This document shows positions 26,694 to 33,340 of a stretch of DNA of 33,340 nucleotides, in pieces. Made by a program: the position numbers and the translations under genes. The first letter of the stretch is position 1; each line of letters starts with the position of its first letter. Location: IMG/VR virus record IMGVR_UViG_3300030107_002740, positions 1 through 33,340 of that record; one strand, 5' to 3'. This DNA is from a virus. The notes under the pieces are model-generated. The model saw only the letters and a program-made list of their open reading frames with translations, did no database searches and was not told the origin of the DNA.

Positions 26694-26940
26694 TCAAGTA
26701 ATAGGCGACAAGTCTTATAATTTTTATAAAATAATTTGGGAAGATATTACAGGCGATTCAACGATTGTAAGTTTTAATGATTTTGACAAAATGGAAACTT
26801 CAATAATTACAACCTTCGCTTACATATACAAAAAAAACGATAAATATTTATGGACTTTCGCCTCTTACTCAGAGGATGGATTTTTTGGTGATAGAAATAT
26901 TATTCCTGTTGGATTAGTTAAAAGCATTACACAACTCTAG
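26635..26940 (+). CDS. Conserved hypothetical protein, 101 aa, overlapping start
   Basis: The ATG at 26635 lies inside the preceding 26-aa gene in another frame and has AAGGGG four bases upstream. The conserved-looking part starts at about residue 23: GDKSYNFYKIIWEDITGDST then IVSFNDFDKM and KYLWTFASYSEDGFFGDRNI then IPVGLVKSI. I recall related small proteins in marine phages. The first 22 residues are mostly lysine because they share DNA with the lysine-rich reading frame. Converges with the minus-strand nuclease gene, sharing 14 bases at the ends. Confidence 0.65.
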   Translation: MALKKADLLKKNLKKEKKSNQVIGDKSYNFYKIIWEDITGDSTIVSFNDFDKMETSIITTFAYIYKKNDKYLWTFASYSEDGFFGDRNIIPVGLVKSITQL

Positions 26941-27292
26941 CAGCATTAGGGAACAGGGCAAAAATACCTTCTAAAAGGCTTAAATTTGCCTCTACAGAGC
27001 CTTTTAAGACATAATGGGGGGTATTTAACTGCTCAGATGTTTCTAGCCACTTTTTTTGTGTATCTGAAAGCCTTCCTTTTTCAGTTTTAATTTCTAAATA
27101 AACGATTTTTCCTTCAGGAAATTCCAGCACTAGATCAGGAACACCTGACTTTAAACCCATACGAACTAGCTTATTAAGAAACCAAACTTTTCTCTGTCCT
27201 TCATTAGGTACAGAAAAATAGCGAAATTTATAGGTTTTTTGCTTTTCTTTAAGATATTCTACTACTGCAATTTGTATGTCAGACTCTTTCAT
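26927..27292 (-). CDS. VRR-NUC domain nuclease
   Basis: 121 residues, the only minus-strand gene. It has the PD-(D/E)XK signature of VRR-NUC proteins: KESDIQ (E3) at the start, SGVPDLVL (D53), VYLEIKTEKGRLSDTQKKW with E67, K69 and Q79. Stand-alone VRR-NUC proteins in phages are small nucleases, some of which act on branched DNA, so Holliday-junction or packaging-related trimming is possible. No ribosome site is seen before its ATG (TAAATGTAGTGT on its strand). Its promoter should lie in 27293-27420, within the inverted repeat region. Confidence 0.88.
   Translation of the reverse strand: MKESDIQIAVVEYLKEKQKTYKFRYFSVPNEGQRKVWFLNKLVRMGLKSGVPDLVLEFPEGKIVYLEIKTEKGRLSDTQKKWLETSEQLNTPHYVLKGSVEANLSLLEGIFALFPNAARVV
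26972..27006 (+). terminator. 9-bp inverted repeat inside the 3' end of the nuclease gene
   Basis: TAAAAGGCT (26972-26980) pairs perfectly with AGCCTTTTA (26998-27006) around a 17-base loop. It lies 30-65 bases past the stop of the last rightward gene before the minus-strand gene, so it may stop rightward transcripts, although no separate T-run follows. It is inside coding sequence, which also shapes it. Confidence 0.4.
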
Positions 27293-27305
27293 ACACTACA
27301 TTTAG

Positions 27306-27406
27306 CATAAAAGAAGGGCAGTTATCATTAAGATTTGGAGAAAAAAATGAAAAAAAACAAGGAACACCTAAATATTTCCCTGATAAACTGCCCTATTCCT
27401 TTTATG
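27306..27406 (+). promoter_or_regulatory. Long imperfect inverted repeat in the divergent control region
   Basis: 27306-27327 (CATAAAAG, AA, GGGCAGTT, ATCA) is the reverse complement, with small bulges, of 27381-27406 (TGATA, AACTGCCC, TATT, CCTTTTATG). About 53 bases lie between the arms and contain the start of a 21-codon ORF with a strong ribosome site. It sits between the divergent nuclease gene and early operon. It could fold in RNA of either strand, act as an attenuator-type leader, or form a small RNA. Confidence 0.6.
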
Positions 27407-27412
27407 TTTTAG
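27347..27412 (+). CDS. 21-codon ORF, possible leader peptide
   Basis: ATG at 27347 preceded by TTTGGAGAAAAAA, identical to the start sites of the early genes; stop TAG at 27410-27412. It encodes KKNKEHLNISLINCPIPFMF after Met. The last two-thirds of its codons lie in the right arm of the inverted repeat, so translating ribosomes would melt that structure. May be a leader peptide or a small gene; coding status is based mainly on the start site. Confidence 0.45.
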   Translation: MKKNKEHLNISLINCPIPFMF

Positions 27413-27448
27413 GTAATTATTTATAGCAAAATAATAAAAAATTACAAA

Positions 27449-27486
27449 TTGTTAATAAATGTATTGCAAATACATAATAAATGTAT
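27449..27486 (+). promoter_or_regulatory. Early promoter with three phased operator half-sites
   Basis: TTGTTA (27449-27454) and CATAAT (27473-27478), 18 bases apart, form a plausible promoter with initiation near 27485. Over it lie ATGTAT (27459-27464), ATACAT (27470-27475) and ATGTAT (27481-27486), inverted and direct copies of one 6-bp half-site exactly 11 bp apart, so on one face of the DNA. Their position over the -10 and start suggests a repressor site. A related pair occurs at the second early promoter. Confidence 0.5.
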
Positions 27487-27516
27487 AGAAAGGTGTAAAT
27501 GAACAAGGAGAAAAAA

Positions 27517-28212
27517 ATGACAGAATATTTTTTTAGAAGTGGATCACCTGTGACAAGAAAAATTCACAAAAAAAATAACAAATTATACTCTTATCAAAAT
27601 TGTTGGAGATGTGATGGTACAGGATATACACCTTATGTTTGGGTTGAAGCTGGTTATTGTTTTAGATGTGGTAAACAAGGTTTCAATCATAGTGATTTTA
27701 AAAGAGTTTTTACTGAAGAAGAATATAATCGTCTTGAAAAAAATAGATTAGCAAGAGAAGAAAAGAAATTTGCTAAAATAAAAAAAGATAATGAATTTTT
27801 TATTGGCAAAGTTCAATTTTATCATAATCCAAATAAATTTGTTTCTAAAATAAATTCTTGGTATGATTTTCAAAACAAAAATCGTGATTATTTTTCAAGA
27901 GTTTTAGAAATTGGAGAGTCTTTAACTAAACAATATTGGCAAAAAATATCATCTAATTTTATAGAATTAGGAAAACATACTGAAAAACTTACTTTAGTTT
28001 TTAGAAAAGGTTTTGAATCTTTTTATGGTTGGTCTGAAATTCTTAAATTTGTTGATGATAAGAATAATCAATATGTTTGGTTTACGTCATCATATCCTGA
28101 TCTTGAAGTAGATGAGTCTTATAATGCTAGATTTATCGTAAAAGAAAATCAAGAGTCAGATCAATATGGAAAACAAAATATGATTAAAAATTTTAAGGTG
28201 GCTCAATCATGA
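27517..28212 (+). CDS. Zinc-ribbon protein of unknown function, 231 aa
   Basis: The frame is open from an ATG at 27499, but that would translate the ribosome site itself (AAGGAGAAAAAA); the ATG at 27517 is the correct start. The product begins TEYFFRSGSPVTRKIHKKN and has two CxxC pairs, CWRCDGTGYTPYVWVEAGY then CFRCGKQGF, at about residues 27-50, a DnaJ-like zinc ribbon. A coiled stretch (FTEEEYNRLEKNRLAREEKK) follows and the rest is aromatic-rich. First gene of the early operon, so a role in takeover or DNA metabolism is likely. Its end forms the left arm of a perfect hairpin. Confidence 0.75.
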   Translation: MTEYFFRSGSPVTRKIHKKNNKLYSYQNCWRCDGTGYTPYVWVEAGYCFRCGKQGFNHSDFKRVFTEEEYNRLEKNRLAREEKKFAKIKKDNEFFIGKVQFYHNPNKFVSKINSWYDFQNKNRDYFSRVLEIGESLTKQYWQKISSNFIELGKHTEKLTLVFRKGFESFYGWSEILKFVDDKNNQYVWFTSSYPDLEVDESYNARFIVKENQESDQYGKQNMIKNFKVAQS

Positions 28213-28701: not shown

Positions 28702-28859
28702 GTGGATTTGGAGATTGGGTTTTAGAGCAGCACGAAGGTGTTTTAAAAAAAGAACCAACAAAAAAAGAAATAAAAAAAGTTTATAAAAAGCAACCTAGAC
28801 TTTCAAAGTCAGTTGTAGTGTATAAACCTAAACTAAGTTTTGAAGGAGAAAAAAAATGA
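28698..28859 (+). CDS. Small hypothetical protein, 53 aa
   Basis: ATG at 28698 overlaps the previous stop and follows AAAGGAG at 28686-28692. It encodes SGFGDWVLEQHEGVLKKEPT then KKEIKKVYKKQPRLSKSVVV, a basic protein with a short acidic aromatic start. The end (SFEGEKK) is encoded by the ribosome site of the next gene, and the stop overlaps that gene's ATG. No known family. Confidence 0.7.
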   Translation: MSGFGDWVLEQHEGVLKKEPTKKEIKKVYKKQPRLSKSVVVYKPKLSFEGEKK

Positions 28860-29161
28860 AACCAGAAATAAGATTAGTTCCTAATAATCAAAAAAATGTT
28901 TCTGTTAGAGTTGGCAATAAAACATATTTTATTTCAGAAGAAGAAGATAAGGAATTAATTGATAAAGCTAATAAGTATAAAAAATTGTTGAGTAGAAAAA
29001 ATCCTATTCCACGAAATTATTTGTATGGTCTTTGGATAACTATTTATAAAGATTCTGGATATGATTTTTATTTAGAGCCAATACAAATGAAGCTATTTGA
29101 TTCTAAATGGAAAAGAGCAATTAATAATTTTTTTAGAAAAGAACAAAGGAGAAAAAAATGA
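28856..29161 (+). CDS. Hypothetical early protein, 101 aa
   Basis: Start at 28856 after GAAGGAGAAAAAAA. 101 residues, basic. EIRLVPNNQKNVSVRVGNKT then YFISEEEDKELIDKANKYKK suggests an N-terminal strand pair followed by a helix, a layout reminiscent of small AP2/integrase-type DNA-binding domains, but motifs are too weak to claim that. The C-terminus is basic (WKRAINNFFRKEQRRKK). Stop overlaps the lipoprotein start. Confidence 0.65.
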   Translation: MKPEIRLVPNNQKNVSVRVGNKTYFISEEEDKELIDKANKYKKLLSRKNPIPRNYLYGLWITIYKDSGYDFYLEPIQMKLFDSKWKRAINNFFRKEQRRKK

Positions 29162-29388
29162 AACAAATTAGTATTATTATTTTAATGTTAATGTTGTCTG
29201 CTTGTTCGTCATATATGCCTGTTTATGATCCTTCTGGTAGTGAGAATAAAGAGTTTTATGATGATTTAGCAGAATGTCGGTTTGTAGCACAAAGCCAAAT
29301 GAGTGGCTTTAGCTATGGATATCATGAGAAAAAAGTGGTATCAAAATGCATGGAAAATAGAGGTTACTCTATTTTAAATAACGAATAG
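29158..29388 (+). CDS. Small lipoprotein, 76 aa
   Basis: Start at 29158 after AAAGGAGAAAAAA. The N-terminus KQISIIILMLMLSACSSYMP is a lipoprotein signal with lipobox LSAC; Cys16 would be lipidated. The next residues (SS) do not resemble an inner-membrane retention signal, so outer membrane is likely. Two more cysteines sit in DLAECRFVAQ and VVSKCMENRGYSIL, a pattern seen in small bacterial envelope lipoproteins. As an early gene, it may block superinfection or alter the host surface; this is inference. Confidence 0.8.
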   Translation: MKQISIIILMLMLSACSSYMPVYDPSGSENKEFYDDLAECRFVAQSQMSGFSYGYHEKKVVSKCMENRGYSILNNE

Positions 29389-29397
29389 GAGAAAAAA

Positions 29398-29877
29398 ATG
29401 CACAGTCAAAGAACTGAATTACTTTTATCAGCCATAGAAGAAGCTAGGGTTGGTTTTAAACAACTAAATAAAAGTGGTCTTAATAGTTTTTTTAAAACTC
29501 AAAATGGGAAACCACATCAATTTAGTACATTAGATGATATATTTAATTCTTGTAAAGATTCTTTAAGAGAAAATAAATTATCTATTTTATATAATATTGA
29601 AGATAAAAACGAATTAATATTTTTGACTACTACAATTACACATTTAACAAGTGGTCAATTTATTAAATCATCATCCTCAATAGGAACTGTATCAAGTAAT
29701 CCTCAACAAATTGGAAGTGGTATTACCTATATGAGAAGGTATCATATTCAAGCTATGTTGAATCTTGAAGCAGATTTTGAAGATGATGGAAACCAAGCAT
29801 CAGGTAGAAATACTAATGAAACTTTTAGTAAGGGTGAGCCGAAAACTAAAGTAATTAATAAAGGAGTAGATATATGA
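29398..29877 (+). CDS. erf: ERF-family single-strand annealing protein
   Basis: 159 residues, start at 29398 after ATAGGAGAAAAAA. The ERF pattern is clear: HQFSTLDDIFNSCKDSLREN, FLTTTITHLTSGQFIKSSSS, then QQIGSGITYMRRYHIQAMLN and LEADFEDDGNQA. ERF proteins form rings that anneal complementary single strands during phage recombination and circularisation. The C-terminal tail is short and polar. Together with the PD-(D/E)XK nuclease at 30765 it makes a likely two-component recombination system, comparable to Red. Overlaps the next gene (ATGA). Confidence 0.88.
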   Translation: MHSQRTELLLSAIEEARVGFKQLNKSGLNSFFKTQNGKPHQFSTLDDIFNSCKDSLRENKLSILYNIEDKNELIFLTTTITHLTSGQFIKSSSSIGTVSSNPQQIGSGITYMRRYHIQAMLNLEADFEDDGNQASGRNTNETFSKGEPKTKVINKGVDI

Positions 29878-30379: not shown

Positions 30380-30548
30380 GCGATTTAGTACATTGGAATT
30401 ACATAAAGACTTATATAACAAAGCACGAATTAAAGTTCAGGCAAAGGTCGGAATAGATAATTTAAGTGCCGCACAAACTTTAAATGCAGTTATGCGAGAT
30501 TTTTTGGGAGAAAAAAATGATACAGAAAACAATAACCAGCCTGTTTAA
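30348..30548 (+). CDS. Small protein, possible ribbon-helix-helix-like, 66 aa
   Basis: Start at 30348 with AAAAGGAGAATGGAAA upstream, inside the HNH gene. SYPIKRFSTLELHKDLYNKA then RIKVQAKVGIDNLSAAQTLN and AVMRDFLGEKN gives one strand and two helices, compatible with a small DNA-binding protein, though a ribbon-helix-helix fold is only a suggestion. Its 3' end overlaps the following gene by 32 bases. A candidate for the regulator that reads the ATGTAT sites. Confidence 0.55.
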   Translation: MSKEKRSYPIKRFSTLELHKDLYNKARIKVQAKVGIDNLSAAQTLNAVMRDFLGEKNDTENNNQPV

Positions 30549-31550: not shown

Positions 31551-31809
31551 AATCAAGATAAGTGATATTGTAAAGATTAATTTTGAAAAATTTAATACAA
31601 ATAAAATATCAAAAATAAATACTAACAATCATGTTGAAAAGGAAATAATTTTTAAGGATGAAATAGTGTTATTAGCTGATCGTTACATGAAAATTGTTCA
31701 AGAAACGAGAAATTGGTGGAAAGGGTATCAGCAAGATTGTATAGATTCAGCTACGAAAGAATTGGAGAAAAAAAATGACAATAAAAAAGGGTTATATAAA
31801 AATAAATAG
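31531..31809 (+). CDS. Hypothetical protein, 92 aa
   Basis: ATG at 31531 with GGAAC upstream, inside the end of the nuclease gene; an earlier ATG at 31489 in the same frame lies deeper inside that gene. KSGEYKIKISDIVKINFEKF then NTNKISKINTNNH is followed by LLADRYMKIVQETRNWWKGY. The end (KKNDNKKGLYKNK) overlaps the initiator gene. No known family. Coding is supported by the lack of space otherwise between nuclease and initiator. Confidence 0.5.
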   Translation: MKSGEYKIKISDIVKINFEKFNTNKISKINTNNHVEKEIIFKDEIVLLADRYMKIVQETRNWWKGYQQDCIDSATKELEKKNDNKKGLYKNK

Positions 31810-32850: not shown

Positions 32851-32871
32851 ATGATTAACAAGGAGAAAAAA

Positions 32872-33078
32872 ATGACTTATTTTAGTAAAAGAACTGTAAT
32901 TGATATTTTTGATTGGTCAGGAAATACAATTCACAATGCTTATGTTTACACTTATCAATGTGGAAAAAGAATATTTGAAAAAAAATATGATAACCACAAT
33001 CAAGCAATTAAAGATTTTCCAAATGCAGAAATATTTTATGACTCTGCTAATAGTGGAAAATTTGAACCAAAATTTTAG
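32872..33078 (+). CDS. Hypothetical early protein, 68 aa
   Basis: Start at 32872 after CAAGGAGAAAAAA. The frame is open from 32845, but that would translate the operator and ribosome site. TYFSKRTVIDIFDWSGNTIH then NAYVYTYQCGKRIFEKKYDN and HNQAIKDFPNAEIFYDSANS suggests a small alpha/beta protein. Function not recognised. First gene of the second early operon; the stop lies just ahead of the next gene's GGAG site. Confidence 0.7.
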   Translation: MTYFSKRTVIDIFDWSGNTIHNAYVYTYQCGKRIFEKKYDNHNQAIKDFPNAEIFYDSANSGKFEPKF

Positions 33079-33087
33079 GAGAAAAAA

Positions 33088-33340
33088 ATGCATATTAAAG
33101 GATTTCAAAGAACAACTACAAAACACAAACAATTTGTAGGTGCTGATCTAGTAAGCACTAATTATTACAGAAGTAATTTTTATAATGATTGGGGTAATAA
33201 ATTAGAATCACTTACAAACCTTGATGGTGTTTTTTCATTACAAATTGAAAAAGGTTTTGATGAACTGTTTTGGTCAATTTATGAAGTTAAACTTCAAAAA
33301 AATAAAAATTTTGTCGCAAAGTTTAAAAAAATTAATGAAG
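33088..33340 (+). CDS. Hypothetical early protein, N-terminal part (continues at 1-194)
   Basis: ATG at 33088 after TTAGGAGAAAAAA. The frame stays open to the end of the window and continues through the overlap to the stop at 192-194, giving 97 residues in all. HIKGFQRTTTKHKQFVGADL then VSTNYYRSNFYNDWGNKLES and LTNLDGVFSLQIEKGFDELF looks like a beta-rich small protein. No motif or membrane segment. It sits in the second early operon, between the genes at 32872 and 221. Confidence 0.75.
   Translation, partial: MHIKGFQRTTTKHKQFVGADLVSTNYYRSNFYNDWGNKLESLTNLDGVFSLQIEKGFDELFWSIYEVKLQKNKNFVAKFKKINE
33188..33340. repeat. Terminal direct repeat, right copy (same as 1-153)
   Basis: Right copy of the 153-base overlap; see the left copy. 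Differences from the left are C33265 (T78) and C33315 (T128). The overlap closes the genome into a circle of about 33,187 bp. Confidence 0.9.

What the first reader, a model, noticed from the sequence alone, without database searches (positions are those of the whole stretch)
27306..27412. Inverted-repeat element enclosing a 21-codon ORF between divergent operons
A 22-26 bp imperfect inverted repeat (27306-27327 with 27381-27406) holds an ORF that has the strong early-type ribosome site. Translation would run through the right arm, so ribosome movement could control folding, as in attenuation. The element also overlaps the region that must hold the promoter of the minus-strand nuclease. It is the largest stretch without a known gene and is not explained by neighbours.
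Basis: partly seen in the sequence, partly recalled or inferred. Interest (0 to 1): 0.6.

Follow-up and report, generated by a model that had tools for sequence, protein, structure and literature searches.

The report
Phage RNA hairpin antisense to early RBSs
A marine phage carries a conserved RNA hairpin whose loop is the mirror complement of the ribosome-binding site shared by its own early genes; loop and binding sites change together across related phages, so it probably silences the early genes as a set by base pairing.

Summary
The inverted repeat is real. In 42 near relatives its stem is kept by compensatory changes (5 of 8 core pairs), but the 21-codon ORF is not kept: 14 lack the ATG and the rest have unrelated frames of 4-45 codons. 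So it is not a leader-peptide attenuator. The element lies 5' of a minus-strand VRR-NUC nuclease gene in over 100 uncultured phages related to pelagiphages. Its loop carries, on the + strand, the extended ribosome-binding site (RBS) shared by the phage's early genes. In the window this is GGAGAAAAAAATG: 7 exact early sites plus 2 near ones, none among late genes. Relatives have seven further loop types (TTC, ATC, CAT, AAT, TAT, TCC, AAC after GGAG). In 89 of 94 contigs the loop type is the commonest early RBS type, over at least 8 switches. G.U evidence (28:1) shows that the distant relatives' adjoining hairpin is a leftward RNA; on that strand the loop exposes the complement, CUCC, unpaired (17/17 and 52/55). 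Best explanation: a leftward leader or small RNA, antisense to all early RBSs at once, represses early translation. Transcription and repression are inferred. A partly similar anti-RBS loop occurs in some cluster K mycobacteriophages.

The parts
27304..27406 (-). Hairpin RNA element, read leftward: 5' arm (27406-27381), U-rich loop, 3' arm (27327-27304). In 7 exact early gene sites the complement of its loop recurs
   Evidence: Folds on both strands; conserved with compensatory changes in 42 near relatives
27316..27323 (-). Core stem, 3' arm on the minus strand (AACTGCCC), followed leftward by a T-rich run (TTCTTTTATGC)
   Evidence: Covariation: 5 of 8 pairs changed on both sides among 8 stem variants
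27386..27393 (-). Core stem, 5' arm on the minus strand (GGGCAGTT)
   Evidence: As above
27337..27349 (-). Loop recognition sequence. Minus strand CATTTTTTTCTCC, the exact complement of the early ribosome site GGAGAAAAAAATG
   Evidence: minus-strand CUCC unpaired in 17/17 group 1 variants; matches early sites with 12-16 nt perfect complement
27347..27412 (+). 21-codon ORF of the finding; judged not a gene
   Evidence: Not conserved: 14 of 42 relatives have no ATG, the others 4-45 unrelated codons
27420..27447 (-). Candidate leftward promoter TTGTAA-N16-TATAAA, start site near 27413 (weak)
   Evidence: Read by eye; the same spacing recurs in several group 1 relatives; the promoter tool lists a different hit 27455-27428; leftward scores only slightly above shuffles
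26927..27292 (-). VRR-NUC nuclease gene directly downstream of the hairpin on the minus strand; no Shine-Dalgarno sequence of its own
   Evidence: Pfam PF08774, 44.4 bits; PHROG Holliday junction resolvase/endonuclease families
27507..27519 (+). Predicted target: ribosome site of the first early gene (27517-28212)
   Evidence: Exact 13-mer, 14-nt complement to loop
28386..28398 (+). Predicted target: early gene 28396
28845..28858 (+). Predicted target: early gene 28856 (GGAGAAAAAAAATG, one base longer)
   Evidence: 12-nt match
29148..29160 (+). Predicted target: early gene 29158 (small lipoprotein-like)
   Evidence: 16-nt match
29388..29400 (+). Predicted target: ERF single-strand annealing protein gene 29398
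30507..30519 (+). Predicted target: early gene starting 30517
31764..31777 (+). Predicted target: DnaD-like replication protein gene 31775 (one base longer)
   Evidence: 13-nt match
32862..32874 (+). Predicted target: early gene starting 32872
33078..33090 (+). Predicted target: early gene starting 33088, running off the window

Best explanation
The element is a structured RNA transcribed leftward, at the 5' end of the VRR-NUC message, either as its leader or as a short RNA ending at the hairpin. The hairpin holds open a loop that is antisense to the extended ribosome-binding site shared by this phage's early genes. The RNA pairs in trans with these sites (in the window SD, spacer and ATG, 12-16 bp) and blocks ribosome loading, so that one RNA turns down a set of early and replication genes while the late genes, which lack the motif, go on. 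Shown here by comparison: the structured hairpin, the loop-to-RBS match, their joint change across phages, restriction of the motif to the early region, and (in the second group) an RNA on the minus strand. Inferred: that the RNA is made, when, that it pairs in trans, and that pairing represses.
For: Stem: 5 of 8 pairs with changes on both sides, covariation 0.629 vs 0.188 shuffled, 0/500. Loop-RBS match: own loop type is the commonest of the RBS types on the early side in 69/71 contigs and rare on the late side for the two best-sampled types (16.6 vs 0.0 and 5.9 vs 0.16 sites per 10 kb); 89/94 contigs, at least 8 changes of loop type on the VRR-NUC tree, including CAT twice and a single-base case TTC to TCC in L213; 328 exact 7-mer matches. 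Whole records show the motif almost only in the early region. Window: 9 of 17 early genes but 0 of 37 late genes have a perfect complement of 12 nt or more; duplex energy -14.5 vs -8.3 kcal/mol, p=7e-5. Strand: hairpin 1 of group 2 has 28 pairs that are G.U only on the minus strand vs 1 only on the plus strand; hairpin 2 26 vs 12; whole group 2 leader more stable on minus in 41/43. Presentation: CUCC unpaired on minus in 17/17 and 52/55 variants; the SD on plus unpaired in 12/17 and 8/55. Where loop and RBS differ by one transition, it is the kind that keeps pairing through G.U in 48 of 49 sites.
Against: No transcript data. In group 1 (the window's own group) strand evidence from stability is weak (15/22) and hairpin 2 alone is ambiguous by energy. 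The matched set is not all early genes. 5 of 94 contigs disagree. The tree test by independent pairs always goes the right way but has too few pairs for significance. The one-transition bias is confounded by AT-rich sequence and by the fixed GGAG.
Confidence: 0.66

Rival explanations
1. Cis control of the nuclease: the hairpins are the VRR-NUC leader and the early mRNAs are the regulators. While early mRNA is abundant its RBSs occupy the loop; when it falls, the free CUCC loop rearranges (for example with the GGGGG arm of hairpin 1) and frees the VRR-NUC start codon. The effect on early genes would be a side effect.
For: The element is always directly 5' of VRR-NUC; in group 2 hairpin 1 encloses the AUG (CAUAGGGG..CCCCUAUG); VRR-NUC has no SD; some folds pair CUCC with GGGG.
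Against: The window's own group has one hairpin, no second arm to swap with. It does not by itself explain why many early RBSs keep one extended motif.
Confidence: 0.14
2. Plus-strand decoy: the hairpin shows the RBS motif itself and soaks up a protein (a RegA-like repressor or CsrA-like GGA binder) or 30S subunits.
For: The loop equals the RBS; GGA in a hairpin loop is a CsrA-type site; plus-strand folds are also stable; hairpin 2 energies slightly favour plus.
Against: On plus the SD is mostly paired (unpaired in 8/55); hairpin 1 is a minus-strand RNA; plus promoters on the left are worse than shuffles (24/82); at least 8 changes of specificity would need a protein to re-evolve each time.
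Confidence: 0.11
3. Relic or recombination site: a decayed first early gene cassette whose RBS persists, or a homology patch used in gene shuffling.
For: Different first early genes follow the same intergenic region in near relatives; identical RBS patches could recombine.
Against: A relic would not keep a compensating stem nor keep the motif in the loop without a start codon in a whole group.
Confidence: 0.05
4. Leader-peptide attenuation.
For: A start codon follows the SD in 28 of 42 group 1 relatives.
Against: Frame, length and sequence not conserved; ATG lost in 14 of 42; no promoter to the left.
Confidence: 0.02

Closest known systems
Staphylococcus aureus RNAIII and similar sRNAs with C-rich loops (PMC2837412)
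   Same: Hairpin loops with anti-SD sequence pair with the SD of several mRNAs and block ribosome loading; hairpin 13 of RNAIII binds the coa RBS.
   Different: RNAIII is a 514-nt host RNA (length from my own knowledge); here a phage RNA next to a nuclease gene targets a lineage-specific extended RBS shared by the phage's own early genes. No Rfam match.
Phage antisense RNAs: P22 sar, lambda OOP and aQ (review PMC12197685), P1 C4 and P4 CI RNA (own knowledge)
   Same: Phage-made RNA that acts on phage mRNA.
   Different: As listed there each acts on one phage target, mostly overlapping or nearby. Here the predicted targets are many and spread over about 6 kb.
Start-associated sequences (SAS) of cluster K mycobacteriophages (PMC3203893) and of cluster EF Microbacterium phages (PMC7302621)
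   Same: An extended, over-conserved RBS motif shared by 13-19 early or right-arm genes. In Anaya, Adephagia, Niklas, LilPharaoh and Validus the complement sits in the apical loop of a hairpin in a noncoding gap.
   Different: Other sequence (GGGATAGGAGCCC), other phages, no VRR-NUC; other cluster K phages with the same SAS have an altered loop or none.
T4 RegA (PMC3014915)
   Same: One regulator competes with ribosomes at about 30 early mRNA start regions.
   Different: RegA is a protein; here the specificity determinant is an RNA loop.

Membership tests
Trans-acting antisense RNA with anti-SD loop (works like RNAIII) | Conserved RNA hairpin | tested here: met
   Compensatory changes
Trans-acting antisense RNA with anti-SD loop (works like RNAIII) | Unpaired anti-SD sequence in a loop | tested here: met
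   17/17 and 52/55 on minus strand
Trans-acting antisense RNA with anti-SD loop (works like RNAIII) | Complementarity to RBSs of several mRNAs encoded elsewhere, maintained in evolution | tested here: met
Trans-acting antisense RNA with anti-SD loop (works like RNAIII) | A transcript of the right strand exists | tested here: inconclusive
   G.U bias in group 2 points to minus; promoter evidence weak; no RNA data
Trans-acting antisense RNA with anti-SD loop (works like RNAIII) | Represses targets | not testable with these tools
   Needs reporters
RNAIII or any other Rfam family (membership) | Covariance model match at gathering score | tested here: not met
   no match
Cis-encoded phage antisense RNA (OOP, sar type) | Encoded opposite its target | tested here: not met
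   Targets lie 0.2-6 kb away on the other side of the promoter
Cluster K SAS system | 13-bp GGGATAGGAGCCC at many starts | tested here: not met
   Motifs here are GGAGAAAAAAATG, TTGGAGTTC and others
Leader-peptide attenuator | Conserved small ORF | tested here: not met
Intrinsic terminator | Stem, short loop, T run | tested here: not met
   None found by rule in the window; by eye, group 1 has T4-T8 after the minus-strand stem, but the loop is long

The most novel reading that the evidence does not exclude
A general phage strategy: early genes carry a private RBS 'barcode', and one antisense loop RNA encoded in the same genome reads it and switches the whole set, with barcode and loop re-evolving together. 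It would have arisen independently in marine pelagiphage relatives and in some actinobacteriophages, and would explain the unexplained SAS motifs.
Probability: 0.3. Interest if true: 0.92.

Novelty: new variant of a known kind. Interest (0 to 1): 0.8.

Why it matters
[quoted passage not shown] It gives a reason for over-conserved RBS motifs in phages, whose role has been open since 2011 for the SAS motifs (PMC3203893 left open whether an RNA or a protein reads them), and makes that question directly testable in culturable mycobacteriophages. The joint switching of a loop with many RBSs also poses an evolutionary puzzle.

Tried and rejected
Leader-peptide attenuation: ORF not conserved. Known RNA family or tRNA: none. 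Simple terminator: no hit by rule. Relatives among named phages: none close at DNA level; the nearest by terminase are pelagiphages HTVC026P, 202P, 111P, 112P and phage DSL-LC06 at 52-54%. No comparably dominant RBS motif was seen in HTVC026P, DSL-LC06 and HTVC202P (HTVC111P was fetched but not scanned for this). Bacterial genomes: no relative of this VRR-NUC. The group sharing the window's first early gene but with no VRR-NUC seen near it (L030, L033) has a hairpin with GTTCTCC in its loop and RBS GGAGAAC, but too few sites to judge. A local alignment of arms over-extended and was replaced. Independent-pairs tests lack power. Cluster K: a strict anti-SAS loop in all members was not found, so the parallel is only partial.

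Full report
Observation. The repeat is at the stated coordinates and folds better than shuffles on both strands. It holds the early-type site GGAGAAAAAAATG, found 8 times in the window, 0 expected, all at 27.3-33.1 kb.

Setting. The window is a virus record. Its terminase is 52-54% identical to those of Pelagibacter phages HTVC026P, HTVC202P, HTVC111P, HTVC112P and of phage DSL-LC06. Nearly all genes run rightward; the VRR-NUC nuclease (26927-27292) runs leftward between the end of the late genes and the start of the early genes. The element lies 5' of that nuclease.

Relatives. Four protein scans of viral contigs brought in two groups of VRR-NUC neighbours. Group 1 (42 sequences with the window) has one hairpin. 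Group 2 (VRR-NUC about 50% identical) has two: hairpin 1 at the nuclease start codon and hairpin 2 to its right. No relative was found in bacterial genomes.

The structure is selected. Among eight stem variants of group 1, 94% of cells pair, 5 of 8 pairs have changes on both sides, and the covariation score is 0.629 against 0.188 in shuffles and at most 0.161 when slid. In group 2 the stems of hairpin 2 differ in sequence between clades and still pair.

The ORF is not. In group 1, 14 of 42 sequences have no ATG; the rest give frames of 4 to 45 codons with unrelated sequence. In group 2 there is usually no start codon behind the motif at all, or only a very short frame.

The loop is the early RBS. 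In every group the loop carries, on the + strand, the extended RBS of that phage's early genes. Types found after GGAG: AAAAA (window), TTC, ATC, CAT, AAT (loop GGAAAAT), TAT, TCC, AAC. Counting RBS-like sites with an open frame in the 6 kb on each side, the own type is the commonest early type in 69 of 71 contigs and, for the two best-sampled types, is almost absent on the late side. With more contigs it is 89 of 94; the loop type changes at least 8 times on the VRR-NUC tree. CAT arose at least twice. L213 differs from its neighbours by one base in the loop (TTC to TCC) and the RBS of its first early gene has the same change. Searching whole records of about 30 kb finds the TTC motif almost only in the early region. 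In the window 9 of 17 early genes but none of 37 late genes have a perfect complement of at least 12 nt to the minus-strand loop. Targets in both groups include a DnaD- or DUF1376-like replication protein.

Which strand. In hairpin 1 of group 2, 28 distinct arm pairs contain 28 A.C juxtapositions on the + strand, which are G.U on the minus strand, against one G.U on the + strand. That is the mark of a minus-strand RNA, in line with the nuclease gene. Hairpin 2 gives 26 against 12. The whole leader is more stable on the minus strand in 41 of 43, although hairpin 2 alone is ambiguous by energy and group 1 leans only weakly (15/22). On the minus strand the CUCC is unpaired in 17/17 and 52/55 variants; on the plus strand the SD is mostly paired in group 2 (8/55 unpaired). 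Promoter scores lean the same way, weakly. Where an RBS differs from the loop by one transition, 48 of 49 sites keep pairing as G.U with the minus RNA, a bias that AT-richness could partly cause.

Mechanism. I propose that the leftward RNA pairs with the early RBSs in trans and blocks initiation, as RNAIII hairpin 13 does at the coa RBS (PMC2837412). It may act as the VRR-NUC leader or as a short RNA; in group 1 a run of 4 to 8 T follows the stem on the minus strand (by eye), which could end it. Timing is unknown; a logical reading is early-to-late shut-off, with the nuclease (Holliday-junction-resolvase-like by PHROG) needed late. These steps are inference.

Rivals. Cis control of VRR-NUC by early mRNA is the strongest, because hairpin 1 encloses the start codon in group 2. 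A plus-strand protein decoy is possible but fits the strand evidence badly.

Comparison. Phage antisense RNAs listed in a 2025 review act on single phage targets (PMC12197685). T4 RegA is a protein with a like role (PMC3014915). The nearest parallel is the SAS motif of cluster K mycobacteriophages, whose reader, RNA or protein, was left open (PMC3203893). That paper notes a single reverse copy in some genomes. I found that copy in Anaya and Adephagia in a noncoding gap, inside a hairpin with CCTCCTATCC in the apical loop; the region is conserved in 177 phage records. Niklas, LilPharaoh and Validus have it too, but Hammy, Amgine and Unicorn have altered CU-rich loops and Pixie, Keshu, MarkPhew and Yuna none, with the same SAS where tested. 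So that parallel is a lead, not a proof.

Limits. All relatives are uncultured contigs, many short; the literature held is open access only; no RNA data were available.

Noticed in passing
L214:31683-32067 and L215:30448-30879 (Anaya, Adephagia); L217, L218, L228: Cluster K mycobacteriophages: the only reverse-strand copy of the SAS motif lies in a conserved noncoding gap, in the apical loop of a hairpin; lost or altered in other subclusters.
   Followed up: partly
group 2 leaders, e.g. L162, L110, L125, L169 (5' of VRR-NUC): An optional conserved insert of about 50 nt (TCTGTTTCACTTC.TATAAATACTGCGATTTATTTAAGTACCTCGAAGAA) in the loop of hairpin 1, present or absent between near relatives (L110 has it, L116 not). 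It may be a separate RNA domain.
   Followed up: no
window 27441-27484: Direct repeats with an 11-bp rhythm (ATGTnnnnnAA) in the early promoter region, also in relatives: operator or origin iterons.
   Followed up: no
group 2 early promoters, e.g. L063, L104, L162: TTGAC-type promoter with a palindrome AACCTAG..CTAGGTT around the -10 region, likely the operator of an early repressor.
   Followed up: no
L030:380-450, L033:1110-1180: In phages sharing the window's first early gene, with no VRR-NUC seen near it, a plus-strand hairpin has GTTCTCC in its loop, the complement of its RBS GGAGAAC; few sites.
   Followed up: partly
L112 and L120 (contig IMGVR_UViG_3300030106_000204): One 30-kb contig carries two different VRR-NUC genes, each with its own leader, near its two ends.
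   Followed up: no
window 26927-27292 and relatives: VRR-NUC has no Shine-Dalgarno sequence; most group 1 relatives start it with GTG.
   Followed up: no
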